Source: Streptomyces sp. NBC_00461
GTDB lineage: Bacteria; Actinomycetota; Actinomycetes; Streptomycetales; Streptomycetaceae
Direction: 5' to 3'
Assembly: GCF_036013935.1 (NCBI RefSeq)
Contig: NZ_CP107902.1
Coordinates: 5,861,001 to 5,925,000 of the forward strand
Length of the DNA: 64,000 bases
In this document: one piece after another, positions 44,594 to 64,000 of the stretch
Numbering within the stretch: position 1 is the stretch's first letter
Layout: each line of letters opens with the position of its first letter
The notes under the pieces: model-generated
The model's database searches: none
Told to the model about the DNA's origin: nothing
What the model saw: the letters and a program-made list of their open reading frames with translations, nothing else
Made by a program: the position numbers and the translations under genes

Positions 44594-44675
44594 GGCGGTG
44601 TGCCCGAGCGGCCAAAGGGAGCAGACTGTAAATCTGCCGGCTCAGCCTACCCAGGTTCGAACCCTGGCGCCGCCA
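44594..44675 (+). tRNA. tRNA-Tyr (anticodon GTA)
   Basis: 82-base type II tRNA. The acceptor GGCGGTG pairs with CGCCGCC (one G-T pair). The anticodon stem GCAGA/TCTGC encloses loop CTGTAAA, with anticodon GTA. A long variable arm precedes the T-stem CCAGG/CCTGG with loop TTCGAAC, and the discriminator base is A. CCA is not encoded. The integrase of the mobile element ends 135 bases downstream, so the 3' half of this gene is the expected attachment site, as for SLP1 in S. coelicolor tRNA-Tyr. Confidence 0.97.
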
Positions 44676-44684
44676 CGCTGAGAG

Positions 44685-44728
44685 AGACCCCCTCCGAACT
44701 GCGGAAACGCAGAGTGGAGGGGGTCTTT
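44685..44728 (+). terminator. Terminator of tRNA-Tyr
   Basis: AGACCCCCTCC pairs with GGAGGGGGTCT, followed by TTT. A small inner hairpin CTGCG-GAAA-CGCAG sits in the loop. It starts 10 bases after the tRNA. Confidence 0.9.
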
Positions 44729-44809
44729 GCGTATTCGAACAGTGTCATTCGAACGATGGTCGAAATGCGCAGCTTGTCTCACCTGGTCTCGGGTGAGTCC
44801 CAGCCCTGA

Positions 44810-46222
44810 TCAGCGCGTGTCCCCCAGGCGTCCCCCGGGGGAGAGGCCAGTCCCGTCCCATTCCCGCAGGCCAGCCTCAATCTGAAGGTTCGCCCGTTCC
44901 TGGGCTTGCGCCAGAACCTTCGCGTAGACACGCAGCAGCACAGCGACGGAGTGTCCGGCCCGACGCGCCACTTCCATCGGATCGACTCCGCTGTAGAGCC
45001 AGAACGAGACCCCGGCGCACCGGAGGTCGTAGGGTCGCCGGGCGAGCGGCGATGCCTCCTGCTCCGGCGTCAGTGCGTCGCCTCGGGCGCTTGCCCACAC
45101 CTCGCCGTATCCCGTGTCCTGAATCACGCCGCCACGGTTCGTGCGGAAGAGGCGGCCGTCCGGAGCCGTGCCGTAGCGCTCGATATGCCACCGGAGCATC
45201 GCGACGAAGTGGGGAGGGATGGGCACCACGCGCGAGTCTCGCTGTGCTCGTGCCTTGAGGTGACGGTCTTGGTGGGCCCGACCATCGTCCGTCCAGTCGC
45301 GGCCGGCGTGGACGATCCCACCGCGAAGGGTGAGCTTGCCCCACCCGCTCTTTGGCAAGTGGCACTGGGACGCGTTCAGTCCAACCGCTTCGGCGGGGCG
45401 CATGGCGGCGTAGTACAGGCACCCGAAGAACGCCTCAAGGTGTGCACCCCGTTCGCCCTGCCCCCGTACGCCCTCAAGCAGAGCCCGCACCTGGCGAGGG
45501 TTGGCGACGCTCGCCGGGTCAACCTCTTCGGTCGACTTCGGAGCCGACCACTTCACGGTGGACAGTGGATTGACCGGAACGCTGAAGTAGCGCCGTTCGA
45601 CCGCGAGCCCCAAGACGTCGCTGAGGCATGCCCTCTTGCGCCGCGCCGTGCGCGCGCCGGCGGAGGAGCCGTTGAGCAGCGTCGACAGGGCGTCCAGAGC
45701 CAGACGGAGCGTGGCGGGGTCTTCGAGAGCGGCCACGGGGAGGGAGTTCTTCTCCAGCCAGCGGAGCGCGTCCGTGACGTCGCTGGGGTGCTCTTGCGAC
45801 CAGCGGCTCTTGTTGTACGCCCAGCCGTACAAGGCGGTGCGGAGTACGCGGGGCGAGGGCTGCCCGACGGTTGTCTTCACGAGTGCGGGGGTGATGGTGG
45901 CCAGGGCGTCGGCATCGTTGCGGCGCGACTTGGCAGGAAGCTTCTCCCACCTGCGGTCGATGTAGGCGCGTGTGTGCTCGTACCAGGTCACGGAGCCGTT
46001 CAGCGCGCGGAGTTCGGAGGCGGGGAGGCCCGTCTCCACGTCGAACTGTTCGCCCTTGCGTAGCGCGGTCATCAGCTCCGAGCGACGACCGTCAGCCTGG
46101 GCTTTGACGGTGTAGCTCTTGGAATGCTTCTGAGGGCCTACAAGCCACCGGACGCGGTAAGGCTTCGGGCGGTCACGGCGGGTTTCGATGCTGTAGATCC
46201 GGACGTCGTAGGTGAGGGGCAT
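44810..46222 (-). CDS. int: Tyrosine-type site-specific integrase
   Basis: 470 residues. The core-binding domain is about 75-225 and the catalytic domain about 240-450. Catalytic residues are Arg275 in YYAAMRPAEAVGL, Arg401 in RRPYDLRCAGVSFW, His424 in RRAGHSVAVLLRVYAK and the nucleophile Tyr433. The box-II His of the usual H-x-x-R is Tyr398 here (PYDLR). It integrates and, with Xis, excises the element at tRNA-Tyr. The ATG is at 46222, 60 bases downstream of xis, as in most AICEs; a perfect hairpin lies in between. Confidence 0.95.
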   Translation of the reverse strand: MPLTYDVRIYSIETRRDRPKPYRVRWLVGPQKHSKSYTVKAQADGRRSELMTALRKGEQFDVETGLPASELRALNGSVTWYEHTRAYIDRRWEKLPAKSRRNDADALATITPALVKTTVGQPSPRVLRTALYGWAYNKSRWSQEHPSDVTDALRWLEKNSLPVAALEDPATLRLALDALSTLLNGSSAGARTARRKRACLSDVLGLAVERRYFSVPVNPLSTVKWSAPKSTEEVDPASVANPRQVRALLEGVRGQGERGAHLEAFFGCLYYAAMRPAEAVGLNASQCHLPKSGWGKLTLRGGIVHAGRDWTDDGRAHQDRHLKARAQRDSRVVPIPPHFVAMLRWHIERYGTAPDGRLFRTNRGGVIQDTGYGEVWASARGDALTPEQEASPLARRPYDLRCAGVSFWLYSGVDPMEVARRAGHSVAVLLRVYAKVLAQAQERANLQIEAGLREWDGTGLSPGGRLGDTR

Positions 46223-46241
46223 GGCTCTCCGAGCAGTGAAA

Positions 46242-46267
46242 GAGCCCGCCCCAAGTGGGGCGGGCTC
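46242..46267. terminator. Hairpin between xis and int
   Basis: Perfect 11-bp stem GAGCCCGCCCC / GGGGCGGGCTC with a 4-base loop (AAGT), in the 60-bp gap between xis and int on the minus strand. It could attenuate transcription into int or mark the end of the upstream transcript. Confidence 0.7.
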
Positions 46268-46282
46268 GATGGGGCGGGGGCG

Positions 46283-46471
46283 TCAGGCGGCCGTGTCTTC
46301 GATGGACGACCACCAAGCGTCGAGGTCGGCGCGGCGGCAGCGAATCTGACCGTTGGGGAGCTTGATGAGCTTCGGGGCCTTACCCCGGGCGCGCATGCGG
46401 TAGAAGGCGGCGCGGCTCATGTCGATCTCTTCTAGGACTTCGGGGAGCTTGAGCATCTTCGGGCGAGCCAT
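46283..46471 (-). CDS. xis: Excisionase (MerR-like helix-turn-helix)
   Basis: 62 residues with a winged helix-turn-helix of the AlpA/Xis type: LPEVLEEIDMSRAAFYRMRARG, then KLIKLPNGQIRCRRADLDAWW. It directs excision with the integrase. The ATG at 46471 follows GAGGAGT; the frame is open upstream but that stretch has no gene-like sequence. Confidence 0.92.
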   Translation of the reverse strand: MARPKMLKLPEVLEEIDMSRAAFYRMRARGKAPKLIKLPNGQIRCRRADLDAWWSSIEDTAA

Positions 46472-46504
46472 CGTTGCGACTCCTCGTCTCGGGCCTTCTG
46501 GGGA

Positions 46505-46755
46505 ATCCGCAACATCCGCCACGCCGCAACATTGCTGGTCAGCGACTTGCATTTGTGGCGGATGCCGGTTGCGTTGCGGATAGGTGCCGCCACGCGGATG
46601 CGCGGCGGCACCTATCGGGTGCGGCTGGTCAGCCGGCGATGCGGAGCTGGCGTGTGTCGGTTTCCGCGAGCACGTGGCGGCTCTCGGAAGGGTCTTCCGC
46701 CACAGATTCACCCTCGTTGACCTGCGGTGTTGCGGACGTTGCGGATGTTGCGGAC
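46505..46755. repeat. Iteron-like GTTGCGGAY repeats and hairpin (origin or Xis region)
   Basis: GTTGCGGAC, GTTGCGGAT and GTTGCGGAC are in perfect tandem at 46729-46755, inside the 3' end of the DUF3631 gene. GTTGCGGAT recurs at 46573-46581, and inverted copies ATCCGCAAC-ATCCGCCAC lie at 46505-46522, facing GTGGCGGAT at 46555-46563. A 13-bp perfect inverted repeat GATAGGTGCCGCC / GGCGGCACCTATC (46579-46591 and 46604-46616) sits at the end of the DUF3631 gene. The 157-bp gap between xis and the DUF3631 stop is therefore almost entirely repeats, suggesting a replication origin or recombination/excision control site. Confidence 0.65.
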
Positions 46756-47897
46756 TTCTCGGGGGGAGGGGGGCAGTAGCGGTTCCAGGCGTCGCTGAGG
46801 TCTTCCGCGTAGTAGCCCTTCGGGGTGCCGCTCCCCACCCGGATGCCGCGGGGCTTGATGGGGCTGTTGTCGGGACGCACGTACTGGCTCAGGAACTTGG
46901 ACAGGGCCCGCGCGGTGAGCGGCTTGGTGCTTTGTCCGTCCTCGCTCAGATCGGCCCACGGCGCGTCATCGAGCCCGAGTAGGACTTCGAGGATGGCGGC
47001 GGTGGGCATGCGGTCCGCGCCGCAGAACGCGCGGTCACGCAGGTCCGTCAGCAGCCGCACCCCGAGCGATGCCTCATCGCCCTGCGAGGCTGCCTTGATG
47101 AGCGAGACACAGGCGATCCGGGCCCGCTCGGGCCATTGCCCACCGGCCGCGTCGGCGACGGCGAGAAGCGGTTCCCACACGTCCGCAGGGCGGTCGGAGA
47201 CTCCCTCGGGCATCTCCGGCCAGGCCGCGGCGACGTCGTCCCTGATGGTGATGGCCCAGTCGGCGAGCCGATCCCGCAACGCGTGCCCCTGCTTCTCATG
47301 GACGCGCCGACGGTAGGGCTCGGCCTTCTCGTTGGGGGCCTTCTTGCGCATCCGGATGATGACCGAGCGGGTCAGGATTGTGTCCGGCAGCGAGCCGAGC
47401 CCGGCCATGGCGACGGCGCAGAACGAGGAGAACCACTCGGTGCTCTGGTTGGAGCCGTCCCCGACGCAGCGCAGCGACTTGGCACCCCGCCGGTAGCCGG
47501 AGTTCAGAAACCCGCGCACCTCTTCGTTACCGCCGGCCTTGGGCCCGAACACGGTGTCGATCTCGTCGAAGAGGAGCGTCGGCGTGCCTCCCTCAGCCTC
47601 CACCAGCCGGAACAAGGCGTTGGCGGAGGCATTGACCGTGGTGGCCGCACGCGGGGTGAGGGTTTCCACGATCTCTAGCGCGCGGGACTTGCCTGATCCT
47701 GGTTCGGGGGAGAGGAACGCGAGACGGGCGGTGCCGTCGAACGCGTCGATCAGGTGGGCGTGGGCGTCCCACAGGGTGACGGCGACGTACGCGGCTTCGG
47801 TCGGAAAGATGTTGAAGCGGCGGTGGAACGCTTCGACCTCGTCGAGCAGAGCCGCGCCATCGATGGACGAATCGGGGGTGTTGGTGCTGGTGGTCAT
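46629..47897 (-). CDS. DUF3631 ATPase, AICE replication protein
   Basis: 422 residues. The P-loop ATPase part has Walker A SPEPGSGKSRALE (about residues 63-75) and Walker B TLLFDEIDTVFG (107-118), plus arginine-rich RSVIIRMRKK. The DUF3631 region fills the C-terminal half (DRPADVWEPLLAVADAAGG, LVRLL-type helices, LTARALSKFLSQYV). Family members are helicase-like partners of prim-pol replication proteins in integrative elements. The C-terminus SATSATSATPQ is encoded by the 9-bp iteron-like repeats. The ATG at 47897 overlaps the upstream gene's stop. Confidence 0.88.
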   Translation of the reverse strand: MTTSTNTPDSSIDGAALLDEVEAFHRRFNIFPTEAAYVAVTLWDAHAHLIDAFDGTARLAFLSPEPGSGKSRALEIVETLTPRAATTVNASANALFRLVEAEGGTPTLLFDEIDTVFGPKAGGNEEVRGFLNSGYRRGAKSLRCVGDGSNQSTEWFSSFCAVAMAGLGSLPDTILTRSVIIRMRKKAPNEKAEPYRRRVHEKQGHALRDRLADWAITIRDDVAAAWPEMPEGVSDRPADVWEPLLAVADAAGGQWPERARIACVSLIKAASQGDEASLGVRLLTDLRDRAFCGADRMPTAAILEVLLGLDDAPWADLSEDGQSTKPLTARALSKFLSQYVRPDNSPIKPRGIRVGSGTPKGYYAEDLSDAWNRYCPPPPEKSATSATSATPQVNEGESVAEDPSESRHVLAETDTRQLRIAG

Positions 47898-48256
47898 GCG
47901 GCGTTCCTCCTTTCCTGGGTGGTGCGGAGCGGGCATGCGTCGCGGTGGGCTTCGTGGTCGGCGATCAGGGCGTGCACCTTGGGGTGGCCCACGGCGCTGC
48001 GGTCCCGGCCGCACAGGCACTTCGAGGTGGCGGTGGGGGTGGTGCCACGAGGCGCCCGGATGCAGAGCCAGGCCACGGGGAAGCGCCCGTCACCCCGCGG
48101 CGGGGCGCTGTGGTCCTGCCCCGGGGGAAGGACTGAAAGGACGGCCTGACGGCCGTCGCCCGTGGTGCCACGGCCGCCGTCCGGGGCGGCCGGAAACAGG
48201 CGCGGACAGCCCGGTGTGGGTGGGTGAGGCTTTTCAGGGCCACGGCGGGGGCTCAT
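47894..48256 (-). CDS. Small AICE protein of unknown function
   Basis: 120 residues. The N-terminal half is Pro/Gly-rich; the C-terminal half is VAWLCIRAPRGTTPTATSKC then KCLCGRDRSAVGHPKVHALI and DHEAHRDACPL. The Cys/His spacing (C-x-C, H, H-x2-H, C) looks like a small zinc site. It overlaps both neighbours by 4 bases (ATGA), between prim-pol and DUF3631, so it is probably translated as part of the replication cassette. I recognise it from similar elements but no function is known to me. Confidence 0.75.
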   Translation of the reverse strand: MSPRRGPEKPHPPTPGCPRLFPAAPDGGRGTTGDGRQAVLSVLPPGQDHSAPPRGDGRFPVAWLCIRAPRGTTPTATSKCLCGRDRSAVGHPKVHALIADHEAHRDACPLRTTQERRNAA

Positions 48257-49790: not shown

Positions 49791-49827
49791 GCTTGACCTC
49801 TCCAGTTCTGTGGTTGAGCTGGGATGA

Positions 49828-51546: not shown

Positions 51547-51987
51547 CTAGAACGGGGGCTTGGGGCTGTTGCCGTCGGTCGTCCACGGGGCATCTGCTGG
51601 GGTACCGCCGTTGTCGCCCGTGGTCTTGCCGTTGATGCTCACGGTGGTGAAGCGCAGGGACGCGCCGATCTCGTCGACCTCGACGGCGAGCATGGAGCGG
51701 TTGTCGCCCTCCGGGGTCTTCCAGTCGTGCTGCCGGATGCGACCGGACAGCACCACCCGCGAGCCCTTGCCGAGGGACTCGGCGACGTGTTCGGCCAGGG
51801 CGCGCCAGGCGGCGCAGCGGAAGAACGTGGACGTGCCGTCCTTCCACTGGTTCGCCTCGCGGTCGAAGGTGCGCGGTGTGGACGCGACGGTGAACTTCGC
51901 GAGCGCCTGGCCGGAGTCGGTGAACTTCAACTCGGGGTCGGTGGTCAGGTTGCCGATGATGGTGATCGGGGTCTCTCCGAAGGACAT
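51547..51987 (-). CDS. ssb: Single-stranded DNA-binding protein
   Basis: 146 residues. OB-fold hallmarks are PITIIGNLTTDPELKFTDSG, TVASTPRTFDREANQWKDG, FFRCAAWRALAEHVAESLGKGSRVVLSGRIRQHDW and NRSMLAVEVDEIGASLRF. The C-terminal tail is short and ends NSPKPPF instead of the usual acidic DDDIPF tip. Accessory SSB for element replication or transfer of single strands. The ATG at 51987 lies 2 bases after the end of the frameshifted small gene upstream. Confidence 0.94.
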   Translation of the reverse strand: MSFGETPITIIGNLTTDPELKFTDSGQALAKFTVASTPRTFDREANQWKDGTSTFFRCAAWRALAEHVAESLGKGSRVVLSGRIRQHDWKTPEGDNRSMLAVEVDEIGASLRFTTVSINGKTTGDNGGTPADAPWTTDGNSPKPPF

Positions 51988-51989
51988 GG

Positions 51990-52137
51990 TCACTCGCTTT
52001 CGGGTGTGGTGGGCTGGTGGTCGGCGGTGACGTAGAGGCGGGTGCGCTTGCCGTCGCTGGTGGGGTACTGGCGTGCCGGGCCGGTGTCGAACGCGGTCGG
52101 CGTCGTCCGGCTCGCAGATGACGCGGATCTCGAACAT
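51990..52137 (-). pseudogene. Frameshifted remnant of a small AICE protein
   Basis: A strong ribosome site (AAAAGGAG) and ATG at 52137 start FEIRVICEPDDADRVR, the N-terminus of a small protein common beside ssb in these elements. The expected C-terminus, FDTGPARQYPTSDGKRTRLY then VTADHQPTTPESE and a TGA at 51990-51992, lies in another frame. The 148-bp length is not a multiple of three, and the two halves join with about 5-7 residues missing, so a small deletion broke the gene. In the original frame translation would read on into ssb. Confidence 0.72.
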
Positions 52138-54706: not shown

Positions 54707-55776
54707 AGGATGGCCCCTTTCCTGGTGGAGGCTCCGTGCGGGGTGGTCATCACGTGCGCGCGGTGCTGCTGGCCGGCGAGCCAGTCGAGCCGGATGCGGT
54801 GCCGGTCGGCCGCAAGGCAGGCCTGCCAGCGGGCCTCGGTGACGCTCTCGGGGCTGTCACCCCACACGGTGAGGTAGGCGTCCAGGTCCACGAGGGTGGC
54901 GCCTTGGACGAGCGCGCCGTGTGTCGTCCCGCTGGCGATGTCGTGCGCATCCTGCTTCACCTTGTCGGCGGTGAAGGCCTCGGAGGCGGCGCGCTGCCAC
55001 TTGGCGGACCGGCGGGACAGGCCCACCGGCAGCGGCCGGTACAGGACGGAAAGGGACCGGTCCGTGCCCGGACCGAGCAGCAGGTTCGGCATGAGGTCGC
55101 CGTCCGTCTCCTCCGGCCAGGCCGTGATCCGGGCGGTCGCCGCGTAACGGCCGTCGTCCAGAGCGGCCCAGCCGGGGCCGGGTTCGGTCACGGCGGGCAG
55201 CCGCTCGGGGGTGACGGGGTTCAGCACCCCGAGGTTGGCGAACTCGCCATGCAGGCTGTCGAGGACCCTGGTGGGGTGGGCGATCAGTCCCTTGGGGAGG
55301 TGGACGGTGATGGTCTGGGTGTGGTCGGTGTAGTCGCGGGCGGTGGTGTGGTGGGTGACGTGGACCTGGATGCCCGCGGTGCGGGCCTGCCCGCTGGCGA
55401 AGACCAGGGCGCGGGCAAACGCGTCATGGAAGCCTGCCCGGCGCTGGGGGTCCTGCATAGTGCCGTGGTCCGGGTAGAGCGCCCACGTCGTGGTCGTGCC
55501 CGGGTGGGCGGCGATCGTGTCCGGGGCACCGCGTTCGCGCAGGTGCCGGTAGCCGACTGCCGCCCAGCGGGCGAGCGAGCGCGGCCCCGGCGCGAGGTTC
55601 AGCACGGCGGCCGTGGCGCCCACGGCGCCGAACGTCCACACCGGCGGCGGGGTGAGCATCGCCGACATCAGCGCGGCACTCCCGAGCCCGGCGTTCACCT
55701 TGGTCAGCAGGGTTTCGGTGCGGCTGAGTCCGCGCTGCAGGGCGGGGATGCGGTAGCCGGGGGTCAGGGAGTACAC
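54703..55776 (-). CDS. SCO6880-like / VirB3-VirB4 N-terminal-like protein
   Basis: 357 residues. After a short N-terminus come one or two hydrophobic segments (LGSAALMSAMLTPPPVWTFGAVGATAAVLNL, about 31-62), as in VirB3/PrgI-type proteins. The soluble part (GFHDAFARALVFASGQARTA, SLHGEFANLGVLNPVTPERL, ALDDGRYAATARITAWPEE) resembles the SCO6880 family and the N-terminal VirB4 domain. Overlaps the ATPase gene by 4 bases; together the two look like a VirB4 protein split in two. ATG start. Confidence 0.75.
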   Translation of the reverse strand: MYSLTPGYRIPALQRGLSRTETLLTKVNAGLGSAALMSAMLTPPPVWTFGAVGATAAVLNLAPGPRSLARWAAVGYRHLRERGAPDTIAAHPGTTTTWALYPDHGTMQDPQRRAGFHDAFARALVFASGQARTAGIQVHVTHHTTARDYTDHTQTITVHLPKGLIAHPTRVLDSLHGEFANLGVLNPVTPERLPAVTEPGPGWAALDDGRYAATARITAWPEETDGDLMPNLLLGPGTDRSLSVLYRPLPVGLSRRSAKWQRAASEAFTADKVKQDAHDIASGTTHGALVQGATLVDLDAYLTVWGDSPESVTEARWQACLAADRHRIRLDWLAGQQHRAHVMTTPHGASTRKGAIL

Positions 55777-55881: not shown

Positions 55882-57147
55882 CTACGGGGTGGGCGGCTGG
55901 CCCGGGGTCGGACGTGGATTCGCCGCCGGGCCTTGGGGGCGCGGTGGCGGGGTGGGGGGATTGGCCGGCTGGCCTGCGGGGGTCGCGGCCTGCGGCCGGG
56001 TGGTGCGGTACTGCTGCCTCACGTCCCGCAGCTGCTGGCGACGGGTGGCGCTTTCGCTCGCGTCCCGCCGCTCCTTCGCGACCGCTGACGTGGTGGTCAG
56101 CCGACCGGCCCGCTCGGGCTTGTTGATGCCGTAGGCGGCGAACAGGACACCGCGGTCCTGGGAGGCTGCGCGGCCCGGGGTGTTCACCGTGCGGGGACCG
56201 CGCGGGGCGTTCTCTTTCTCGTAGAAGTCCGGGGCACCTGCCCGCACCACGGCATGGGCCAACGGGCTGGGGGTCCGGCGCTCCACCCAGGCCCGTGCGC
56301 CGCGGGCCACCTTGGGGCCGAAGTACGGCACACCGTGGAAGATCATCCGCAGCATCAGGGCATCCGCGGCGACCAGCAGAACGGAGTCCACAACGAGCGA
56401 ACCCTTCGTGATCTCCACGAACGGCGAGATGAGTAGCAGCGCGAACGGGGCCAACATCAGCCCCAACAGCCGCTGAGCCCAGGTCTTGACCGCGGTCATG
56501 TCGCCCCCGCGGGCCAGCGATGCCAGCACCAGCGGAGCCATGCACACGAACGCCAGGATGCCGAGCTGGCGAGTCATGAAGACCAGCGCGGCAAACGCGA
56601 GGGCGACAGCCAGGGCACTGAAGATGACCAGGATGGCAAGCGGGTTACCCGAGTCCGCTCCGTGCTGCATGTCGTCGCTGATCGCGCCGAACAGCGTGGA
56701 CTCGTTGCTACTGAACGCGGCCGTGAACGCGCCGCTCACGGCCTTGTTCAACAGCATGACGGCCCCGGGGACCGAAGCCATGCCGGCGACGGCCACCAGG
56801 GTCCATCCGGTCGATGCGCCCATCTGCCGAAGTCGGGGTGCGCCCTGCCAGGCGGTCAGGGCGCACACGACGACGACACAGACGAAGATGGCGACCGCGA
56901 GGTGCTGACCGAGCCACAGGAACGGCTCGTACAGCCCGCTGTCCGACTTCGCCGGCGCCCACGAATGTTCCGGCGCAATAAGCCCCTTGATCTTCGCAAT
57001 GAGGCTGTCGGCAAGGGCGCGAACGTGGTCGGAGGCGCCACCGGTGGCACTGCCGGTGCCGGGGGGACTGTTCGAGTCCGGGCCCCTTGTGCAGTAGTCG
57101 TAGCCCGGAGTGCCCTTCAGTGCGTCACACGGGTCCTTGTCTGCCAT
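55882..57147 (-). CDS. VirB6/TrbL-like polytopic membrane protein
   Basis: 421 residues. A short N-terminus with four Cys-like polar residues (KDPCDALKGTPGYDYC) and an amphipathic region lead to about six transmembrane helices between residues 75 and 290 (LAVAIFVCVVVVCALTAW, TLVAVAGMASVPGAVMLL, LAILVIFSALAVALAFAAL and LVLASLARGGDM onward). The C-terminal 120 residues are basic then Pro-rich (NPPTPPPRPQGPAANPRPTP). This is the VirB6/TrbL pattern of type IV secretion inner-membrane channels. Six bases separate it from the VirB2-like gene upstream. Confidence 0.78.
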   Translation of the reverse strand: MADKDPCDALKGTPGYDYCTRGPDSNSPPGTGSATGGASDHVRALADSLIAKIKGLIAPEHSWAPAKSDSGLYEPFLWLGQHLAVAIFVCVVVVCALTAWQGAPRLRQMGASTGWTLVAVAGMASVPGAVMLLNKAVSGAFTAAFSSNESTLFGAISDDMQHGADSGNPLAILVIFSALAVALAFAALVFMTRQLGILAFVCMAPLVLASLARGGDMTAVKTWAQRLLGLMLAPFALLLISPFVEITKGSLVVDSVLLVAADALMLRMIFHGVPYFGPKVARGARAWVERRTPSPLAHAVVRAGAPDFYEKENAPRGPRTVNTPGRAASQDRGVLFAAYGINKPERAGRLTTTSAVAKERRDASESATRRQQLRDVRQQYRTTRPQAATPAGQPANPPTPPPRPQGPAANPRPTPGQPPTP

Positions 57148-57153: not shown

Positions 57154-57429
57154 TCAGCCCTTGGCCTGGGTGACGGTGGAGAACAGGGTGTCCCCGTACA
57201 GGGCGAGCACGACGGCGACGAACAGCGTGCCGATCGCCGTGCTGCCCTTGCGCAGGGCGCCCTTGGGGTCACCGGACAGTTGCAGCAACATACGCAGGGC
57301 GATGACCGCGATGACGGCGGCGATGCCTTTGGTGACCAGGCCGCCGCCGGTCAGGCCGATGGTGTCGAAGAAGTCCTTGAACCCAACGGACATGTCGGTC
57401 GGCTTGGCGAGCACGGTGAACTTGGACAT
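57154..57429 (-). CDS. VirB2-like small membrane protein
   Basis: 91 residues with two hydrophobic helices (GLVTKGIAAVIAVIALRMLL and GTLFVAVVLALYG) joined by a basic loop SGDPKGALRKG. There is no clear cleaved signal. Size and topology resemble VirB2/TrbC-type pilin-like proteins or small VirB3-like proteins of mating systems. Three bases from the VirB1-like gene upstream and 6 from the VirB6-like gene downstream. Confidence 0.65.
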   Translation of the reverse strand: MSKFTVLAKPTDMSVGFKDFFDTIGLTGGGLVTKGIAAVIAVIALRMLLQLSGDPKGALRKGSTAIGTLFVAVVLALYGDTLFSTVTQAKG

Positions 57430-57432: not shown

Positions 57433-58425
57433 TCAGATCTCCTTGTTGCCGTGGGAGGTGGGACGGGCGACAGCGATCAGGTCAGTCATGACGTCCATGG
57501 GGTCGTAGCGGACCTGGGTGCCGGGGCGGGGGGCGTCGAGAATCCAGCCGCCGCCGATGTAGAGGCCGACGTGGTGAATGCTCGTGAGGCTGGAGCCGTA
57601 GAAGACGAGATCCCCGGGGCGCACGTCCCCGGGCTTGACCGGCTCCGAGGCCGCGTACTGCTCGGCAGCCGTGCGGGGCAGGGAAATACCCGCCTTCGCG
57701 TAGGCGTAGAGCGTGAGCCCGGAGCAGTCGAACCCGGAAATGTCTGTTCCGGAACGACCCTTGGGTGAGCAGCAGGTTCCCGTGCTGGGCCCGCTGGCGC
57801 TTCCGCCGCCCCACGAATACGGCTGGCCGATCATTGCTTTTGCCGCGCTGATCGCGGCTTCGGCCTGCGTGGTGGTGGCGGGTTTCCCGCCGGACGGCTG
57901 GTCGGCGAGCGCTTGGATGGATTTGACGTAGTTCTGTGTCTCCTTGTACGGGGGAACGCCCCCGTATTTGCGGACGGCGCCGCTTCCGGCGTTGTAGGCG
58001 GCCAGCATGTTGCCCTGCGCGTTGCCGGGAACGTCCTTGACGTCCTTGGCTATGCCGCACAGGTATGCGGCTGCCGAGGGAATCGCGTCTGCCGGATCCC
58101 ACACATCGCGCTTTCCGTCGCCGTTGCCGTCGATTCCATGGGTCTCCCAGGTCGACGGCATGAACTGTGCGATGCCTTCCGCGCCGACCTGGGACTGTGC
58201 TTTCGGATTGAAGCCGGATTCCTGCGTCAAAAGCGCGGCGAGCAGGTTCGGGGTGACGGTCGAGCAGCTGTTTCCCGCGTTCTCGATCAGGGATTTGTAC
58301 TGGCGGGGGACGGTCAGACTGAGCGCCGTGGACACGGGGTCGTCGCCGGCGCCCTGCACGAGCGCGGACACCAGGACTGCCGCGGTCGCTCCCACACCGA
58401 CTGTGACGGCTGTAGAGGCTCGCAA
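57433..58425 (-). CDS. Bifunctional lytic transglycosylase-NlpC/P60 endopeptidase (VirB1-like)
   Basis: 330 residues. An N-terminal hydrophobic segment (AVTVGVGATAAVLVSALV) acts as a signal or anchor. An SLT transglycosylase domain spans about 42-170 (LLAALLTQESGFNPKAQS with catalytic Glu69, then GIAQFMPSTWETHG, MLAAYNAGSGAV). An NlpC/P60 domain spans about 195-325 with Cys234 in SGFDCSGLTLYAYAKAG and His284-285 in SIHHVGLYIGGGWI. It should open peptidoglycan for the mating channel. The TTG start at 58425 has a GGAGG site 7 bases upstream. Head of the transfer cluster that ends with the VirB4-like ATPase. Confidence 0.92.
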   Translation of the reverse strand: MRASTAVTVGVGATAAVLVSALVQGAGDDPVSTALSLTVPRQYKSLIENAGNSCSTVTPNLLAALLTQESGFNPKAQSQVGAEGIAQFMPSTWETHGIDGNGDGKRDVWDPADAIPSAAAYLCGIAKDVKDVPGNAQGNMLAAYNAGSGAVRKYGGVPPYKETQNYVKSIQALADQPSGGKPATTTQAEAAISAAKAMIGQPYSWGGGSASGPSTGTCCSPKGRSGTDISGFDCSGLTLYAYAKAGISLPRTAAEQYAASEPVKPGDVRPGDLVFYGSSLTSIHHVGLYIGGGWILDAPRPGTQVRYDPMDVMTDLIAVARPTSHGNKEI

Positions 58426-58616
58426 CGGGCCTCCTCCCTCCTCTCAGGGGCAATCGATCATTTCTGCTTGTCAGGACCGCCACCCGGGTCCGCCAGGAGT
58501 CCGCCAGTAGTCCGCCGTACACCCGCCGTGAGGGCGGACGCACGGCGGGCAAGCAGCCCGCCACGGCGGTGCCGTGGCGGGTGCCTGGCGGATGGTCCGG
58601 CGGGCCCGGATGACGG

Positions 58617-60293
58617 TCAGGTACCGGACATAGCGGCTGCCGTGAGATCGGTCAGCCAGTAGCCGCGCGCGCCCTTGTCGTCCTTGCCCGGCGCGACTCC
58701 GAGCAGCTTCGACAACTGCTTTCCGCGCTCACCAGGGCGGGTGTCAGTGATGCCGAGCGCGGGTGCCAGATCGGAGGTGAGCATGAACTCGGCATCGTTC
58801 TTCCTCAGCAGGTCGATGGCCTGCTTCAGCGGAGAATCCGGGATCGCCGCTTCACGCCGGGCATGAACTTCGTCGACCACACCCCAGATGAACTCATCCG
58901 AGAAATTGAAGCCCCGGAGCAGCGTTGACGAGCCGTTCGCGAACAGCACGCCCTGCCCCTTGACGTCCGGGTCAAGGAGCGCCGGGTGAATCGGGGCGAC
59001 CGTATCGAAGTACGAGTCCCCGAGGGCGACTTTCGCACTGCCCTCCGACGCCACGTACAGGCACATCCGGTACAGGAACTGATCCCGCACCTTCACCGGA
59101 ATCGCATCCCTGGCTGGACGCTGCGTCAGCATCACCGTGGAAATCCCCGATTCCAGGGATTTCGCAACCAGGGAGCGAGACTTGTCCTCTACCCGGCGAA
59201 CCTGTTCCTTCGATTCTTTCGTGCCGTTGTCGGTGTAGAAGTCGGCAGCTTCGTCGATGATGAAGAACACCGGCTTGAACACCGGGGCGCGCTGCCGGTT
59301 GCGGATGGCCTCCTGCAACTGCGTGTACCGGTCGTCCACACGAACGAGCAGCTCATTGAGCATGCTCTCCAGAACGGCCGGGTCGTCCGACGCTTCGTAG
59401 CGCACCGCGAGCTTCTCGAACCTGGTCAGCCCGCACAGCTTGCCGTCGAGCAGGTACAGGTCGAAGTCGCCGTACGCGATCAGCAGGCACGTGATGAGCC
59501 CGTTGACCAGCGTCGTCTTGCCCATCTGGGTCATGCCACCGACCAACAAGGAGGCCTTGTCGAAGGTGGGCACCCCGGCGAGCCGGCCGGTCACCTCGTG
59601 TCCGAGGGGAACCCCCGCGAACGTCTGGATCTCCTGCCGGGTCGGCGCCGGGAACGGTCGACTGAACGGCGGCTCGTTGAGCACCAGAAGACGAACACGG
59701 CGCTCGGTCTTCCGGCTCGTCTCCAGCTTCAGGTGCAGGCGCGTGACGCCGAACATCGACGCGATCGGACCGAGCCGCTTCGCGACATCGTCGTGGGTAC
59801 GGCCCTCCGGCACCAGGAAGTCGTAGACGGTGCCGATACCGGGCAGCGTCTCGATCACGACGTCACCGGCACGAACGTGCTCACCCCTGCCGATGGCCCC
59901 AACCCGGCTGAGCACCATGGTCAGTTGCGAGTGACTCTCATCCCCACTCGGAGAAGCCACGGCAGGCGCTTGCGCCTGGTCCACGGGCTCACCCGGCGCC
60001 TGCGCCTGGACGGCCTCGACAGGGGATTCCTGTTGCAGGGCCGTCTGTTGGACCGCAGGGGAGGTTTCCGGTTGGCATGCCCACAGACGCGGGACGCCCC
60101 AACGGATCCTCCATGCCAGGTAACCGATGGCCACCAGCCCTCCGGCGGTAAGTAGCACCGTGGCCGGCCAGGACAAGCTCAACTTGTCCTTGATGGTGGC
60201 GAGGAAGCCGAAAGCGATGGCGAGGCCGCCGATGGCGCCTGCCATCTGCCCGTAGGTGTCCTCGCCCGGACCTTGCTGTTTCTTCCTGCCCAC
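58617..60293 (-). CDS. traB: TraB/FtsK-SpoIIIE type DNA translocase
   Basis: 558 residues from the GTG at 60293 (GGAGAGGG upstream); a GTG at 60323 is possible. Two N-terminal helices (about 16-33, 43-63) are followed by a Pro/Gln linker. The FtsK ATPase domain contains Walker A VGGMTQMGKTTL (about 252-262) and Walker B VFFIIDEAADF (342-352), then TVMLTQRPARDAIPVKVRDQ. The C-terminal winged-helix-like part (FMLTSDLAPALGI ... GYWLTDL) could bind DNA. This is the Streptomyces conjugation pump that moves double-stranded DNA. Its upstream region has TraB-recognition-like repeats. Confidence 0.93.
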   Translation of the reverse strand: MGRKKQQGPGEDTYGQMAGAIGGLAIAFGFLATIKDKLSLSWPATVLLTAGGLVAIGYLAWRIRWGVPRLWACQPETSPAVQQTALQQESPVEAVQAQAPGEPVDQAQAPAVASPSGDESHSQLTMVLSRVGAIGRGEHVRAGDVVIETLPGIGTVYDFLVPEGRTHDDVAKRLGPIASMFGVTRLHLKLETSRKTERRVRLLVLNEPPFSRPFPAPTRQEIQTFAGVPLGHEVTGRLAGVPTFDKASLLVGGMTQMGKTTLVNGLITCLLIAYGDFDLYLLDGKLCGLTRFEKLAVRYEASDDPAVLESMLNELLVRVDDRYTQLQEAIRNRQRAPVFKPVFFIIDEAADFYTDNGTKESKEQVRRVEDKSRSLVAKSLESGISTVMLTQRPARDAIPVKVRDQFLYRMCLYVASEGSAKVALGDSYFDTVAPIHPALLDPDVKGQGVLFANGSSTLLRGFNFSDEFIWGVVDEVHARREAAIPDSPLKQAIDLLRKNDAEFMLTSDLAPALGITDTRPGERGKQLSKLLGVAPGKDDKGARGYWLTDLTAAAMSGT

Positions 60294-60380
60294 ACCCTCT
60301 CCGTTCTGTGTGATCACGGGCACGCGGGCATGGCTCGCGCGCCGCTTGGGATGCGCGGGATTGGCTTTCTGTGATGCTCG

Positions 60381-60438: not shown

Positions 60439-60473
60439 TCACTTGGGTTCGACTGCTTCCGGCAGTCGCAACG

Positions 60474-60506: not shown

Positions 60507-60528
60507 TTGGTGTGTGCCGGATGGCGGC

Positions 60529-61533
60529 TTACGGCTGTGCGTCCTCCGCGTCGATCAGCGCGGCGTAGGCCTTACGCACCCGCTCTTCCTTCGCGGAGAA
60601 GCCCGCCGCGCGGTACGCGGCCAGGGCCTTGCGGTAGGACAGCGGGGGGTTCTCCGAGTGGCGCAGCCACCGCAGCACGACCATGAGCTGTTCCTCGGTC
60701 AGCGGCTCGCCCGGCCGGGGCGTCTCGACGCCGACCACGGCCGCCACGTGGGCGAGCCCCGGCCAGTCGAGCGGGGTGTGTCCCTCGCCCTTGGCGGCGG
60801 CGATTTCCCCGATCGGGGACACGGGGCTGACCTGCGGGGACACAGGGGACACGCCCTCCTGTGTCCACTGCCCCAAGACCTGGGCCAGGTCCTCATCCGA
60901 GAACAGTGCCGGAACCCCCTCGGGGAGGTCCGCGGCCGGGTGCTCGGAGGCGAGCTCCGCCAGCTTCTCGGCTGCCGCGTGGCGCACCTTGTGCGCCCTG
61001 CCGCGGGCAGCGTGTTCCTCGCGCTCCAGGTGGGCGGCCGTCTTGTGCCGGTCGGCTTTGGCCCGGGTGACCGCGCGGCCGATCGCGACCTGATCCCTTG
61101 TCGCGCTGCGCACGGCGTCGATCTGCTGCTGTGCTGAGGGGGAGATGCGGGTGGTGTCCCGCTCCACGGCCATGATGAGCGTGGCCTTGGCGGCGGCCGG
61201 AACCACCGCACCGATCACGGCGACGATCGCCGTGGCGTAGAGCAGGCCGTGGGTGACCAGTACGCCGACCGAGGTGACCAGGAACAGCCAGCCGAGAGAG
61301 GCAGGCAGTTTGCCGGACGATCCCTGCCGACGGTGCGCGGTCTCCATGGCCAGCGCGTACAGCCACACCGCGTCGTAGATCCCGGCCACCGTGTAGGCGA
61401 GCGGTGCCGGGGCCTGGTGGGCGAGGATCTCCCCCACCGCGTACACGGTCCAGCCCAGCGACAGGCCGGTCAGACCGACCGGCAGACTCCAGTGCACCGC
61501 CCTGCGGGCGGCTTCCTTCCACTCCATGTCCAT
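60529..61533 (-). CDS. Membrane protein, SpdB-like spread protein
   Basis: 334 residues. Four hydrophobic helices fill residues 15-140 (SLPVGLTGLSLGWTVYAVGE, LAYTVAGIYDAVWLYALAME, LGWLFLVTSVGVLVTHGLLYATAIVAVIGAVVPAAAK). Then comes a charged coiled-coil-like region (AVTRAKADRHKTAAHLEREE), and the C-terminus (RPGEPLTEEQLMVVLRWLRH to RVRKAYAALID) is a winged-helix-like module. This resembles SpdB-type proteins thought to assist intra-mycelial spreading of conjugative elements. The ATG at 61533 gives the best membrane start; 5 bases separate it from the RRQRL gene. Confidence 0.7.
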   Translation of the reverse strand: MDMEWKEAARRAVHWSLPVGLTGLSLGWTVYAVGEILAHQAPAPLAYTVAGIYDAVWLYALAMETAHRRQGSSGKLPASLGWLFLVTSVGVLVTHGLLYATAIVAVIGAVVPAAAKATLIMAVERDTTRISPSAQQQIDAVRSATRDQVAIGRAVTRAKADRHKTAAHLEREEHAARGRAHKVRHAAAEKLAELASEHPAADLPEGVPALFSDEDLAQVLGQWTQEGVSPVSPQVSPVSPIGEIAAAKGEGHTPLDWPGLAHVAAVVGVETPRPGEPLTEEQLMVVLRWLRHSENPPLSYRKALAAYRAAGFSAKEERVRKAYAALIDAEDAQP

Positions 61534-61537
61534 GTGA

Positions 61538-61921
61538 TCACTTCCATTCGTGTTCCTGGTCGTCGGGGTAGGCGCAGGGGACGCACACCCCGAGCGAGGT
61601 GGGGATGACGTAACCGGCATCCCGGCGGCACTGCGGGCAGGTCCGGCGGGCGCGCATCGCGCACTCCAGCGCCCGCCGCTTGGCCGGCGTCATCGGCCGT
61701 ACCGGCTTGGCCTTGTCGAGCCGGTAGAGGTAGGCGACCAGCGGCCCGCGCCGAAAGCGCGGCCGGAGCACCTGCGCCGCGACCGGCTGTCCGCCGGGAC
61801 GCAGGCCACGGGCCCGCAACTGCCGCCTGGTGGCCAACCCGTCGGGTGCGTAGCGCCACGGGTAGGTGGGGATGCCGTGCCGGGCGCCGGTCGGGTCGAA
61901 GCACTTGGCTAACGCGGCCAT
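61538..61921 (-). CDS. RRQRL-motif zinc-binding protein
   Basis: 127 residues. The RRQL-type motif is GLATRRQLRARGLRPGGQP (about residues 28-46), followed by PLVAYLYRLDKAKPVRPMTP. A zinc knuckle CPQC (about 95-98) and CVPC (about 112-115) sits at the C-terminus. The family occurs in Streptomyces conjugative elements next to Spd proteins, function unknown. Its start shares one base (61921) with the last base of the preceding gene's stop. Confidence 0.85.
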   Translation of the reverse strand: MAALAKCFDPTGARHGIPTYPWRYAPDGLATRRQLRARGLRPGGQPVAAQVLRPRFRRGPLVAYLYRLDKAKPVRPMTPAKRRALECAMRARRTCPQCRRDAGYVIPTSLGVCVPCAYPDDQEHEWK

Positions 61922-62250
61922 CAGGCCACTACCCCGACCGGTGCCGGGGCGGCGACGTCGCCGTAGCCGACCAACTCCAGCTCGGCACCCGCGTACGCGA
62001 CGGTCGTGCGCAAGACGCGCGTTTGGCCGTCGCTCTGCAAGCGGTAGGTCACCTCCTCGGGAGCGACACCCAATGCCTCGCGCCAGGCCTCGAACCCGGG
62101 CAGCCCGGAGTGGAGCGCCAGCTCTAACCGGTCCGGGTAGATAGGTGAGATGCTCACGGTCGGTGCCGGCAGGTGCCCGAAGTCCACAGTCAGCAGGCGC
62201 AGCGCCCGCAGCGGCACGGAGAGGTCGTCCAGCGCCAGGCCGTCGCTCAT
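61921..62250 (-). CDS. Small AICE hypothetical protein
   Basis: 109 residues, no membrane helix. LSVPLRALRLLTVDFGHLPAPTVSIS, then LELALHSGLPGFEAWREALG and VLRTTVAYAGAELELVGYGD form an alternating beta-rich pattern. Not recognised as a known domain. Overlaps the Pycsar-effector-like gene upstream by 4 bases (ATGA) and touches the RRQRL gene downstream, so it belongs to one operon with them. Confidence 0.7.
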   Translation of the reverse strand: MSDGLALDDLSVPLRALRLLTVDFGHLPAPTVSISPIYPDRLELALHSGLPGFEAWREALGVAPEEVTYRLQSDGQTRVLRTTVAYAGAELELVGYGDVAAPAPVGVVA

Positions 62251-62693
62251 GCCGCGCCCCCCAGCGCGATCAGGGCAGACAGGATGAGCAGCGCGCCACC
62301 CGCAAAGGTCAGGTCGATTGCCCGGCGCAGGCAGGTGAACTTGGCCACCGCCAGCCGGGACAGGCCCGCGACGTCGGCGGCGAGATCACCGGAGACCGCG
62401 GCGGGAATCTCCTCCGGCGCCAGCGTGGCCCACAGTGGGAAGCCGTGCCGCCCCCGCAGGTTCGGCCGTACTGACCGCAGCAGCAGGCCGGCCGCCGTAA
62501 CCAGCAGTGCCAGACCGAGCCCGCCCGCGCCGTACGCGGCCACGCTCAGGGGCAGGTCACGCGCTACCGTCCAGGCGCCGGCGAGCACCGCGCCGACAAA
62601 CGCCAGCAGCAGGGCGGTTTTGGTATCGGTCCGCGCAATCTCCGCCTTCACTTCGGCGTGGGCGGCCGTCACGCCCTGTCCGGCGGCGCTCAT
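62247..62693 (-). CDS. Pycsar-effector-like (PycTM/DUF5706) membrane protein
   Basis: 148 residues. A helical start (AHAEVKAEIARTDTKTALLL) leads into two close transmembrane helices (LLAFVGAVLAGAWTVA and VAAYGAGGLGLALLVTAAGLLL). Then SVRPNL, a short soluble stretch, LSRLAVAKFTCLRRAIDLTF and a final helix (AGGALLILSALIAL). The order R-T-D-x-K-T / helix pair / R-P-x-L / K-x-x-x-L-R / helix is that of PycTM proteins, effectors of cCMP/cUMP-triggered anti-phage systems. No nucleotide cyclase is adjacent. In an AICE it may instead serve in membrane sensing or superinfection exclusion. Confidence 0.75.
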   Translation of the reverse strand: MSAAGQGVTAAHAEVKAEIARTDTKTALLLAFVGAVLAGAWTVARDLPLSVAAYGAGGLGLALLVTAAGLLLRSVRPNLRGRHGFPLWATLAPEEIPAAVSGDLAADVAGLSRLAVAKFTCLRRAIDLTFAGGALLILSALIALGGAA

Positions 62694-62983
62694 GCGGCAA
62701 CCCCTCGACCTGTCGCACGGCGGCGGATCGGGCGGACCATCGGGATCACGTTGAACAGGTCCGGGTGCTCCTCGACGACCCGAGCGGCCAGGCGGATCAG
62801 GTCGTCGGGCAGCGTGCGGAACTCGGGGTCGGCGAGGATGTCACGGGCCGCGTCCAGCCGTGCCGCGCACTCCTCGTCGCTCTCGCCGTCGACCCCGAGC
62901 CAGAGTTCGGCGGGGGTGCCGAGGGCGAGTTCGGCGAAGTCCTGCGGGGTGTCGGCCCGGTGTCCACAGACGTAATTGAGCAT
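62690..62983 (-). CDS. Small hypothetical AICE protein
   Basis: 97 residues starting LNYVCGHRADTPQDFAELAL. CGH and later DEECAARLDAARDILADPEF, then RLAARVVEEHPDLFNVIPM; mostly helical, acidic in the middle and basic at the end (RPIRRRATGRG). No domain recognised. The ATG at 62983 has GGGAG 4 bases upstream; an in-frame ATG at 62995 lacks one. The frame stays open upstream to 63556, including an ATG at 63331. Overlaps the Pycsar-like gene by 4 bases. Confidence 0.6.
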   Translation of the reverse strand: MLNYVCGHRADTPQDFAELALGTPAELWLGVDGESDEECAARLDAARDILADPEFRTLPDDLIRLAARVVEEHPDLFNVIPMVRPIRRRATGRGVAA

Positions 62984-63854
62984 GGGAGCTCCCATGTCGA
63001 AGGGATAGGAGAAGTGCGCGGCACCACGGGTCGAACCCGGGGGACCGCTTAGGGCCGGACTGTCCGGCTCCCCCCGCCCCGCCCGTACGGCCGGCGCACC
63101 CAGGTGCGGGCCGGACGGGCGAGGAGAGGGAACCGGCCGCAGCGCAGGCCGCTGCGAAGCCAGGAAGAGGCGGACCGGGAAGTTGTTCAGGCGCTGCAAG
63201 TCGGTCCATACGGCAGCGCCCGGCCATGTCGTCGGCCCACGCCGACCTCCCGCAGGTAGCAGGGACACGGCTTCACCGGCGCTCCGTTGCCACGGATCGC
63301 CGGTCCCGAGCCGGGGAGTCGGGTGCGTCATCGTCGCTGCTCTGACGCCAGCAGGCGGCTTGCACGAATCGGTGCAGGGTGGCGTGCCGCCGACGACATC
63401 ACCCGGTCGTCGCGGGGGCGGTCTCACTCTTGCCGCCACATGCGTTGGGGCCCGCTGTACTTCCCCACACCCGGAACCGGGTGGCGCCTGCCAGGCGCGT
63501 AGGGGGAGAGCCACGTTCATCACGGCGGTTTGCCCCCGGACCCTCGCCCTAGGCACCTGCCGTGACCGCCGCTCTCGCGTCAGCCCCGCACGATCACTGT
63601 TCAGTTTTCAAGGACGTGCGACATGAGCCGCTTCCGGCGAGTTGTCGCGTCCAGCAGGTGCAGTACCTGTTTTACAGGTACTGCATGGGGGTCCGTCAAG
63701 TACAGCGACGGAACCTCTTGGTTTTGCGCCGGGACTTTTTGGCGCACAATCAGAATCGCCCCAGGTCAGGGGAGTTCGTTACCCCCTACGTGGACAGCTC
63801 CCGATCAGCCAACTACCGTCAAGAGCTCCCTAGATGTCCCTCGAAGGGGTGCAG
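62984..63854. other. About 870 bp with no certain gene
   Basis: On the minus strand an ATG at 63331 opens a frame running into the 97-residue protein (THPTPRLGTGDPWQRSAGE; VWTDLQRLNNFPVRLFLASQ) without a good ribosome site. It might be a real N-terminal extension or an unrecognised short gene. The plus-strand ORFs here look like shadows. The 63590-63850 stretch is relatively AT-rich, carries a 25-bp palindrome and precedes the XRE gene, so it is probably its promoter and operator. A second weaker inverted pair (TGCGCC / GGCGCA) lies near 63727-63755. Confidence 0.5.
63660..63684. promoter_or_regulatory. 25-bp palindromic operator upstream of the XRE gene
   Basis: GCAGTACCTGT, a TTT spacer, then ACAGGTACTGC: a perfect 11-bp inverted repeat. 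It lies 171 bp upstream of the XRE regulator start in a non-coding region. The strict dyad symmetry suggests a dimeric repressor site, for example of a GntR-type (KorSA-like) or XRE regulator; an RNA hairpin is the alternative. Confidence 0.7.
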
Positions 63855-64000
63855 ATGTCCAACGAGCGGTTGCGGTCGGCCCTGTTAGCCCGTGGCATGA
63901 CCGTTCAGAGCCTCGCGGACGAGATCCAGGTCAACGCAAAGACCGTGGAGCGCTGGATCACGCAGAGCAAGGTGCCGTACCGGCGTCACCAGTACGCAAC
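63855..64000 (+). CDS. XRE-like helix-turn-helix regulator, partial
   Basis: The start is visible and the gene runs off the right edge; 48 residues. RLRSALLARGMTVQSLADEI and QVNAKTVERWITQSKVPYRR form a clear Cro/CI-type helix-turn-helix. Streptomyces AICEs often carry this gene with a NUDIX (Pif-like) hydrolase downstream; the downstream part is not in the window. ATG at 63855 with GAAGGGG 5 bases upstream. It is the only rightward gene in the distal transfer region and probably regulates the element. Confidence 0.85.
   Translation, partial: MSNERLRSALLARGMTVQSLADEIQVNAKTVERWITQSKVPYRRHQYA

What the first reader, a model, noticed from the sequence alone, without database searches (positions are those of the whole stretch)
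44594..64000. AICE integrated at tRNA-Tyr, mixing FtsK-type and type IV-secretion-type transfer genes
Directly after tRNA-Tyr come int, xis, prim-pol and DUF3631. A transfer block follows with both a TraB/FtsK pump (normally sufficient for Streptomyces mycelial DNA transfer) and VirB1-, VirB2-, VirB4- and VirB6-like genes. The two transfer logics in one element raise the question whether DNA, protein or both move through a channel. SLP1 of S. coelicolor uses the same tRNA but, as I recall, a simpler gene set.
Basis: partly seen in the sequence, partly recalled or inferred. Interest (0 to 1): 0.7.

Follow-up and report, generated by a model that had tools for sequence, protein, structure and literature searches.

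The report
Mobile element with hybrid DNA-transfer machine
A mobile DNA element inserted at a tRNA gene, apparently in a Streptomyces chromosome, carries one conserved transfer machine that joins an FtsK-type DNA pump to type IV secretion-like parts, a combination reported as needed for transfer of plasmid SLP2, and it makes the question of double-stranded DNA passing through such a channel testable.

Summary
tRNA-Tyr (44594-44676) is attL of a 35.2-kb AICE that the window cuts; attR lies beyond, with an identical 57-bp core in a 112-bp repeat, and relatives show the site without the element. The FtsK/VirB mixture is real and is one unit. SpdB2-like, TraB/FtsK, VirB1, VirB2, VirB6, VirB3-VirB4N, VirB4 recur in that order in 12 of 12 loci from 11 of 150 genus genomes and in linear plasmid SLP2, where six co-transcribed genes are reported as required for conjugation. 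VirB4 and its split N domain are supported by predicted folds; VirB6 by weak homology to a chromosomal T4SS-like cluster; VirB2 only by position, size and hydrophobicity. No relaxase was found in four families searched. Instead, 8-bp repeats follow traB in 33 of 33 loci tested and change with TraB's C-terminal region, as expected of a clt. Most likely TraB selects double-stranded element DNA there and acts as coupling ATPase of a minimal T4SS-like envelope conduit. Protein export is unsupported. The kinds are known (SLP2-type transfer, SLP1 site); the combination in an AICE, the repeat code and the dsDNA-T4SS reading are the newer parts.

The parts
44594..44676 (+). tRNA-Tyr (gta), kept whole at attL; identical 57-bp att core 44626-44682
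   Evidence: ARAGORN; second copy at genome 5940834 = window-equivalent 79834
44810..46222 (-). tyrosine integrase
   Evidence: PHROG integrase 7.3e-27; Pfam Phage_integrase E 0.017, below cut-off
46283..46471 (-). Xis-like HTH protein (about 62 aa; start chosen by eye within ORF 46283-46711)
   Evidence: HTH_17 1.4e-6; 96% identical in the second element
46629..48020 (-). DUF3631 (RepAM-type) replication protein
   Evidence: Pfam 6.3e-58; RepAM = DUF3631 as in PMC3218068
48253..49161 (-). Prim-Pol primase-polymerase
   Evidence: Pfam 9e-40
51547..52137 (-). SSB
   Evidence: Pfam 5.1e-26
52547..54706 (-). VirB4-like ATPase (Walker A-like GLGSGKST, invariant in 26 sequences) with TPR-like stretch (about 443-523), long helix read as TM (about 564-596) and C-terminal beta domain (about 600-719)
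54703..55776 (-). VirB4 N-terminal domain as a separate protein, preceded by two helices (low confidence, pLDDT under 50) that I read as VirB3-like
55882..57147 (-). VirB6-like polytopic membrane protein
   Evidence: several hydrophobic segments; profile match to the colinear core-cluster protein, 5.4e-14 in own genome and 1.2e-8 in G031, E-values for the few hundred ORFs of one locus
57154..57429 (-). VirB2-like small membrane protein, 91 aa
   Evidence: position, size, hydrophobic segments; 73-95% identity to 14 relatives; no profile hit, and no hit in the core cluster
57433..58425 (-). VirB1-like lytic transglycosylase plus NlpC/P60 peptidase
   Evidence: Pfam SLT 3e-22, NLPC_P60 1e-24
58426..58616 (.). 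clt-like array of about ten 8-bp repeats (consensus TCCGCCAg), mostly one orientation in the half near traB and the other in the far half
58617..60323 (-). TraB-type FtsK/SpoIIIE DNA translocase; C-terminal region taken to be the winged helix by analogy with pSVH1 TraB
   Evidence: Pfam FtsK_SpoIIIE 2.3e-10; 62% identical to SLP2
60529..61620 (-). SpdB2-like membrane protein
   Evidence: position and similarity to the SLP2 gene annotated spdB2-like
61538..61921 (-). RRQRL-motif zinc-binding protein
   Evidence: NCBIfam NF041638 6.9e-46; also in SLP2

Best explanation
This is an actinomycete integrative and conjugative element at the SLP1 site (tRNA-Tyr) whose transfer module is of the SLP2 linear-plasmid type. 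Int/Xis excise it and RepAM/Prim-Pol/SSB replicate it. TraB, an FtsK-type motor, binds the repeat array just 3' of its own gene (a clt) and pumps unprocessed double-stranded DNA. VirB1 (wall opening), VirB2, VirB6, split VirB3/VirB4-N and VirB4 build a minimal T4SS-like envelope conduit, with TraB in the place a VirD4 coupling protein would hold. Shown here: element bounds, gene order, conservation as a unit, purifying selection, predicted folds of VirB4 and its split N domain, no hit to four relaxase families in the genome, the repeat array and its covariation with the TraB C-terminal region. Taken from a citing paper: requirement of the homologous SLP2 genes for transfer. Inferred: dsDNA substrate, TraB binding to the array, physical TraB-VirB coupling, channel function, operon structure here, excision.
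For: Same seven-gene order in 12 of 12 loci from 11 of 150 genus genomes. TraB is found in 34 of 36 distinct loci; of the other two, L077 is cut by a contig end, and L084 has no hit for TraB, VirB1, VirB2 or VirB6 in about 7.5 kb upstream. Among plasmid records, 25 of 25 with SLP2-type TraB (47% identity or more) also carry the VirB4, and 25 of 26 with the VirB4 (55% or more) carry that TraB; the 26th has a distant ATPase (29% identity to TraB) in the same slot. SLP2 has the same order, and PMC2782261 (passages) says six co-transcribed SLP2 genes are required for transfer. dN/dS is 0.10-0.22 for each of the seven genes between the two elements of this genome. Folds. No TrwC, Relaxase, MobA_MobL or Rep_trans match in the own genome. 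Array: score above the best of 20 shuffles in 33 of 33 loci; 0 of 100 dinucleotide shuffles as high in each of 5 loci. Arg at one C-terminal position versus base 5: C in 0 of 9 loci with Arg and 22 of 24 without, Fisher 1.4e-6; 9 of 9 nearest-relative pairs agree. Mantel r 0.32 for the last 72 columns of TraB against 0.19 for VirB4.
Against: VirB6 and VirB2 have no T4SS profile match and no VirB8 was recognised. VirB4 matches lie below curated cut-offs, and both AlphaFold models are of modest confidence (mean pLDDT 57 and 61). The clt covariation rules were framed after looking at the data; the loci are related; two of the 24 non-Arg loci (G017, G128) break the rule; the register is unsure in L069, L076 and L088; the TraB motor region correlates nearly as well (Mantel r 0.27). 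The window's own array is the second weakest of the 33 (18.1; range 15.8-28). G019 has a TrwC relaxase 13 kb from its module. The Mob_Pre search had no positive control. The primary SLP2 transfer papers could not be read.
Confidence: 0.72

Rival explanations
1. TraB alone moves the DNA, as described for pIJ101 and pSAM2, and the VirB-like genes serve an accessory step such as wall remodelling, spreading or surface contact, not a DNA channel.
For: The neighbouring AICE at tRNA-Ser in the same genome has a 708-aa FtsK-type protein followed by a repeat cluster, and no VirB-like gene was found in it. TraB is described as acting without other known T4SS subunits (PMC12857230, passages).
Against: In the plasmid collection SLP2-type TraB occurs with the VirB4 in 25 of 25 records; the SLP2 genes are reported as required for transfer; VirB4 is described as the signature subunit of T4SSs.
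Confidence: 0.22
2. It is an ordinary T4SS-type ICE moving single-stranded DNA with a relaxase and a VirD4-like coupling protein.
For: VirB4-, VirB6- and VirB1-like genes; a TrwC gene 13 kb from the module in 1 of 11 genomes.
Against: No TrwC, Relaxase, MobA_MobL or Rep_trans match in the own genome; an FtsK-type TraB with a clt-like array and no VirD4 match in the module.
Confidence: 0.04
3. The module exports proteins, alone or with DNA.
For: T4SSs as a class move DNA or proteins (PMC12857230 abstract).
Against: No secreted substrate or chaperone was recognised among the genes scanned (no dedicated search was made); TraB appears tied to a DNA motif.
Confidence: 0.03
4. Two unrelated modules lie side by side by chance or decay.
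For: AICEs exchange modules and decay (PMC9513070, passages).
Against: Same order in 12 of 12 loci and in SLP2; dN/dS 0.10-0.22.
Confidence: 0.01

Closest known systems
Streptomyces lividans linear plasmid SLP2 transfer region (NC_004933)
   Same: Same genes in the same order, TraB 62%, VirB4 62%, repeat array after traB
   Different: SLP2 is a linear plasmid; here the module sits in a chromosomal element with int, xis, DUF3631 and Prim-Pol
SLP1 (Gi11) of S. coelicolor
   Same: tRNA-Tyr site, 112-bp direct repeat, type IV McrA-type restriction enzyme near attR (PMC3009677, passages)
   Different: 17.1 kb against 35.2 kb; SLP1's own sequence and its Tra protein were not compared here
cmdABCDEF (SCO4126-4131) core cluster
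   Same: Colinear VirB6-, VirB4N- (SCO6880 family) and VirB4-like genes in the two clusters inspected; SLP2.21-23 resemble SCO4127-4129 (PMC2782261)
   Different: Chromosomal, with a TraG/VirD4-like gene next to VirB4 and no TraB hit; deletion affects sporulation and, as unshown data, did not alter transfer of an SLP2-derived plasmid (PMC2782261)
pCW3 Tcp system of Clostridium perfringens (TcpA)
   Same: FtsK-like coupling ATPase in a T4SS, dsDNA substrate suggested (PMC12857230, passages)
   Different: Not compared by sequence here

Membership tests
AICE (FtsK-type actinomycete ICE) | integrase and flanking att repeats at a tRNA | tested here: met
AICE (FtsK-type actinomycete ICE) | Rep module (RepAM and/or Prim-Pol) | tested here: met
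AICE (FtsK-type actinomycete ICE) | FtsK/TraB transfer protein | tested here: met
   FtsK_SpoIIIE 2.3e-10; NCBIfam plasmid_TraB only 21 bits against a cut-off of 800; accompanied by VirB-like genes
AICE (FtsK-type actinomycete ICE) | excision and transfer | not testable with these tools
   needs PCR and mating
SLP2-type transfer module | gene content and order | tested here: met
SLP2-type transfer module | requirement of the genes for transfer | not tested
   reported for SLP2 in PMC2782261 (passages); one primary paper not held, the other not looked up
SLP1 family | tRNA-Tyr site and 112-bp repeat | tested here: met
SLP1 family | SLP1-type transfer genes | not tested
   SLP1 sequence not fetched
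T4SS-type ICE | VirB4 ATPase | tested here: met
   below curated cut-offs by profile
T4SS-type ICE | relaxase | tested here: not met
   no match in the own genome for TrwC, Relaxase, MobA_MobL, Rep_trans; Mob_Pre inconclusive; other MOB families not tested
T4SS-type ICE | VirD4-type coupling protein | tested here: not met
   none among the module proteins scanned; FtsK-type TraB instead
T4SS-type ICE | VirB6 | tested here: inconclusive
   no profile hit; weak homology to the colinear core gene
T4SS-type ICE | VirB8 | tested here: inconclusive
   none recognised among proteins scanned
clt (TraB binding locus) | repeats of about 8 bp next to tra | tested here: met
clt (TraB binding locus) | binding by the TraB winged helix and need in cis | not testable with these tools
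   covariation only

The most novel reading that the evidence does not exclude
A double-stranded-DNA type IV secretion system: an FtsK motor with its own clt recognition code has taken the coupling-protein seat of a minimal, relaxase-free T4SS. Motors with different DNA specificities can be swapped into that seat while the VirB conduit is kept (G128, G017 and the S. althioticus plasmid).
Probability: 0.5. Interest if true: 0.8.

Novelty: new variant of a known kind. Interest (0 to 1): 0.6.

Why it matters
Streptomyces conjugation is commonly described as needing a single plasmid protein, TraB (PMC4170104; PMC3218068), and a T4SS review of December 2025 says TraB works without other known T4SS subunits. 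A conserved module in which one TraB clade comes with VirB4-, VirB6- and VirB1-like partners (25 of 25 plasmid records for VirB4) makes it testable whether dsDNA can pass through a T4SS-like conduit, and how the two kinds of conjugation are related. The link between repeat and TraB C terminus, if confirmed at the bench, offers a way to predict which elements a given TraB will move.

Tried and rejected

The residue-base rules were formed after seeing the table, so their p values are descriptive. Motif register was set by best fit to one reference. The shuffles were of 2-base blocks; proper dinucleotide shuffles were run for 5 of 33 loci. 'Wing' and 'winged helix' positions are read by eye and by analogy, not from a structure.

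Full report
Element and bounds. The window is bases 5861001-5925000 of a single 10.37-Mb contig. tRNA-Tyr at 44594-44676 is followed by an element that runs about 15.9 kb past the window's end. Its right end is a copy of the tRNA 3' half at genome 5940834-5940945: 57 identical bases and then a diverged terminator, 112 bp at 91% overall. SLP1 of S. coelicolor is reported to make a 112-bp direct repeat in the same tRNA (PMC3009677, passages). From repeat to repeat the element is 35.2 kb. In four relatives (G004, G007, G009, G012) the left flank matches up to the tRNA and the right flank again from attR; tRNA-Thr lies 2.2, 3.1, 9.3 and 3.6 kb beyond tRNA-Tyr there, and 42.3 kb here. The 3.5-4.2 kb just right of attR are not matched in these four. 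G011 has a second tRNA-Tyr-like copy 20 kb away, so it too may hold an element here. The genus is Streptomyces by inference: five unnamed genus genomes have contigs of the same length and match as named Streptomyces records.

One module, not two. A search of 150 genus genomes with VirB4 found relatives in 148. Twelve loci in 11 genomes are of this full-length type (59-100% identity); in 12 of 12 the other six genes are present in the same order. Adding 28 loci from the genome collection of 84,980 species and SLP2 gives 41 loci, 36 of them distinct; TraB is found in 34 of 36. In the plasmid collection 25 of 25 records with SLP2-type TraB have the VirB4, and 25 of 26 with the VirB4 have that TraB. 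The exception, a linear plasmid of S. althioticus, keeps VirB1, VirB2, VirB6, VirB4N and VirB4 at 63-88% identity but has an ATPase only 29% identical to TraB in its slot, with weak AAA_10, HerA and FtsK matches below cut-off. Trees of VirB4 (33 rows) and TraB (32 rows) disagree for G128, G017 and L068, so TraB and parts of the block seem to have been exchanged between modules. dN/dS between the two elements of this genome is 0.10-0.22 for each of the seven genes.

SLP2 and the core cluster. S. lividans linear plasmid SLP2 has the same order, annotated spdB2-like, FtsK/SpoIIIE, lytic transglycosylase/C40, hypothetical proteins and ATP/GTP-binding protein. PMC2782261 (passages) says six co-transcribed SLP2 genes are required for conjugal transfer and that three resemble SCO4127-4129; that the six are TraB to VirB4 is my inference. 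Of the primary SLP2 papers one was not held and one not looked up; a later SLP2 paper was not held. Most other VirB4 relatives are about 37% identical over residues 10-390. I inspected two of them (own genome and G031): a VirB6-like, an SCO6880-family (1.2e-52) and a VirB4-like gene (AAA_10 2e-13, above cut-off) lie in the module's order, followed in the own genome by a TraG/VirD4-like gene; G031 also has a VirB1-like gene a few kb away on the other strand. This matches the cmd cluster. It gives the T4SS reading of the mobile module a second line of support. No VirB2 or TraB hit was found there.

DNA selection. No TrwC, Relaxase, MobA_MobL or Rep_trans match was found in the own genome; the Mob_Pre search had no positive control. 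Of the 11 genomes with the module, six have TrwC and three have Relaxase somewhere; in one (G019) a TrwC gene lies 13 kb from the module. The spacer between traB and virB1 holds a cluster of 8-bp repeats, mostly in one orientation in the half near traB and the other in the far half. In 33 of 33 loci the score exceeds the best of 20 shuffles; in 5 of 5 loci none of 100 dinucleotide shuffles reached it, and in the window's element the best of 370 windows overlaps this spacer. Known clt loci hold such repeats, in pWTY27 right beside tra, and pSVH1 TraB reads 8-bp motifs with a C-terminal winged helix (PMC3583192, passages). The repeat changes with the TraB C terminus: with Arg at one position base 5 is C in 0 of 9 loci, without it in 22 of 24 (Fisher 1.4e-6); where the next residue is Asp, base 1 is A in 0 of 7, otherwise in 22 of 26 (7.7e-5). 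Nine of nine closest-relative pairs differing in the Arg differ in base 5 in the expected way. The two elements of this genome, 90% alike in TraB, differ in both together. Mantel r is 0.32 for the last 72 columns of TraB (3 of 2000 permutations), 0.27 for the TraB motor (15), 0.19 VirB4 (104), 0.18 VirB1 (116), 0.15 VirB6 (209), 0.09 VirB4N (442); partial r for the C terminus is 0.20 (31). The rules were read off the data and the loci are related, so these numbers describe rather than prove. The FtsK-type gene of the tRNA-Ser neighbour AICE also has a repeat cluster right after it, and so, with another motif, has the S. althioticus plasmid.

Reading. The element most likely moves double-stranded DNA chosen by TraB, with the VirB-like proteins supplying wall opening and an envelope conduit; protein export has no support here. 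In kind it is an AICE with an SLP2-type module at the SLP1 site. Six loci have DUF3631, Prim-Pol and SSB matches near the module (this element, the second one in this genome, G067, L064, L065, L068; in the second element the best Prim-Pol match lies in the neighbouring AICE). In L064, L065 and L068 a tRNA-Thr, tRNA-Pro and tRNA-Arg lie on the replication side, but an integrase was found only in L068, and none in G067, so those sites are guesses. Ghinet et al. found the two largest AICE Tra clades free of plasmid Tra proteins, SLP2's included, and called such exchange rare (PMC3218068, passages); this element looks like such an exchange. A review of December 2025 describes TraB as working without other known T4SS subunits and notes TcpA of pCW3 as a possible dsDNA pump inside a T4SS (PMC12857230, passages). 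That makes the present module a natural place to test a dsDNA T4SS.

Noticed in passing
genome 5936637-5940890 (window-equivalent 75637-79890): A 1153-aa NACHT protein (4e-21; Trypsin E 0.026, below cut-off) and a Trypco2 protein (3e-26) fill the 4.2 kb between a degenerate att copy and attR: a CIME-like cassette, possibly defence, though PADLOC gave no match.
   Followed up: partly
genome 5934159-5935877 (window-equivalent 73159-74877): Type IV methyl-directed restriction enzyme (PADLOC mREase_IV, 1154 bits); SLP1 carries one, ScoMcrA, near attR.
   Followed up: partly
genome about 4847100-4876760 (L042, L043): Two AICEs in tandem at tRNA-Ser: one with the same SLP2-type module (88% DNA identity), one with a 708-aa FtsK-type protein and no VirB-like gene found.
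   Followed up: yes
L093 4237-11497; VirB4 relatives in 148 of 150 genus genomes: A chromosomal cluster that matches cmdABCDEF looks like a T4SS (VirB6-like, SCO6880-family, VirB4, TraG/VirD4-like); only two copies were inspected.
   Followed up: partly
genome 5929253-5930182 and L042 1604-2533: A Ku homologue lies in both elements within a 2.2-kb stretch of 92% DNA identity.
   Followed up: no
window 62247-62693: Small membrane protein matching Pycsar effector PycTM (2e-10); SLP2 has a gene annotated so downstream of its transfer genes. It may be a transfer or exclusion protein rather than defence.
   Followed up: no
genome 5941040-5944090: Beyond attR lie a long ORF that reads like an MFS transporter and what looks like a broken second copy of the element's Nudix gene (both by eye), perhaps left by an earlier element.
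   Followed up: no
window 52547-54706, protein residues 443-719: VirB4 with TPR-like stretch, long helix and beta domain; the shorter core-cluster relative (475 aa) aligns only to about residue 390.
   Followed up: partly
window 49892-50836: HNH_2 nuclease gene (3e-10) on the opposite strand, overlapping the start region of the methyltransferase-like ORF.
   Followed up: no
L068 13616-13691: A tRNA-Gly gene lies between virB4 and the Prim-Pol gene of this AICE-like locus.
   Followed up: no
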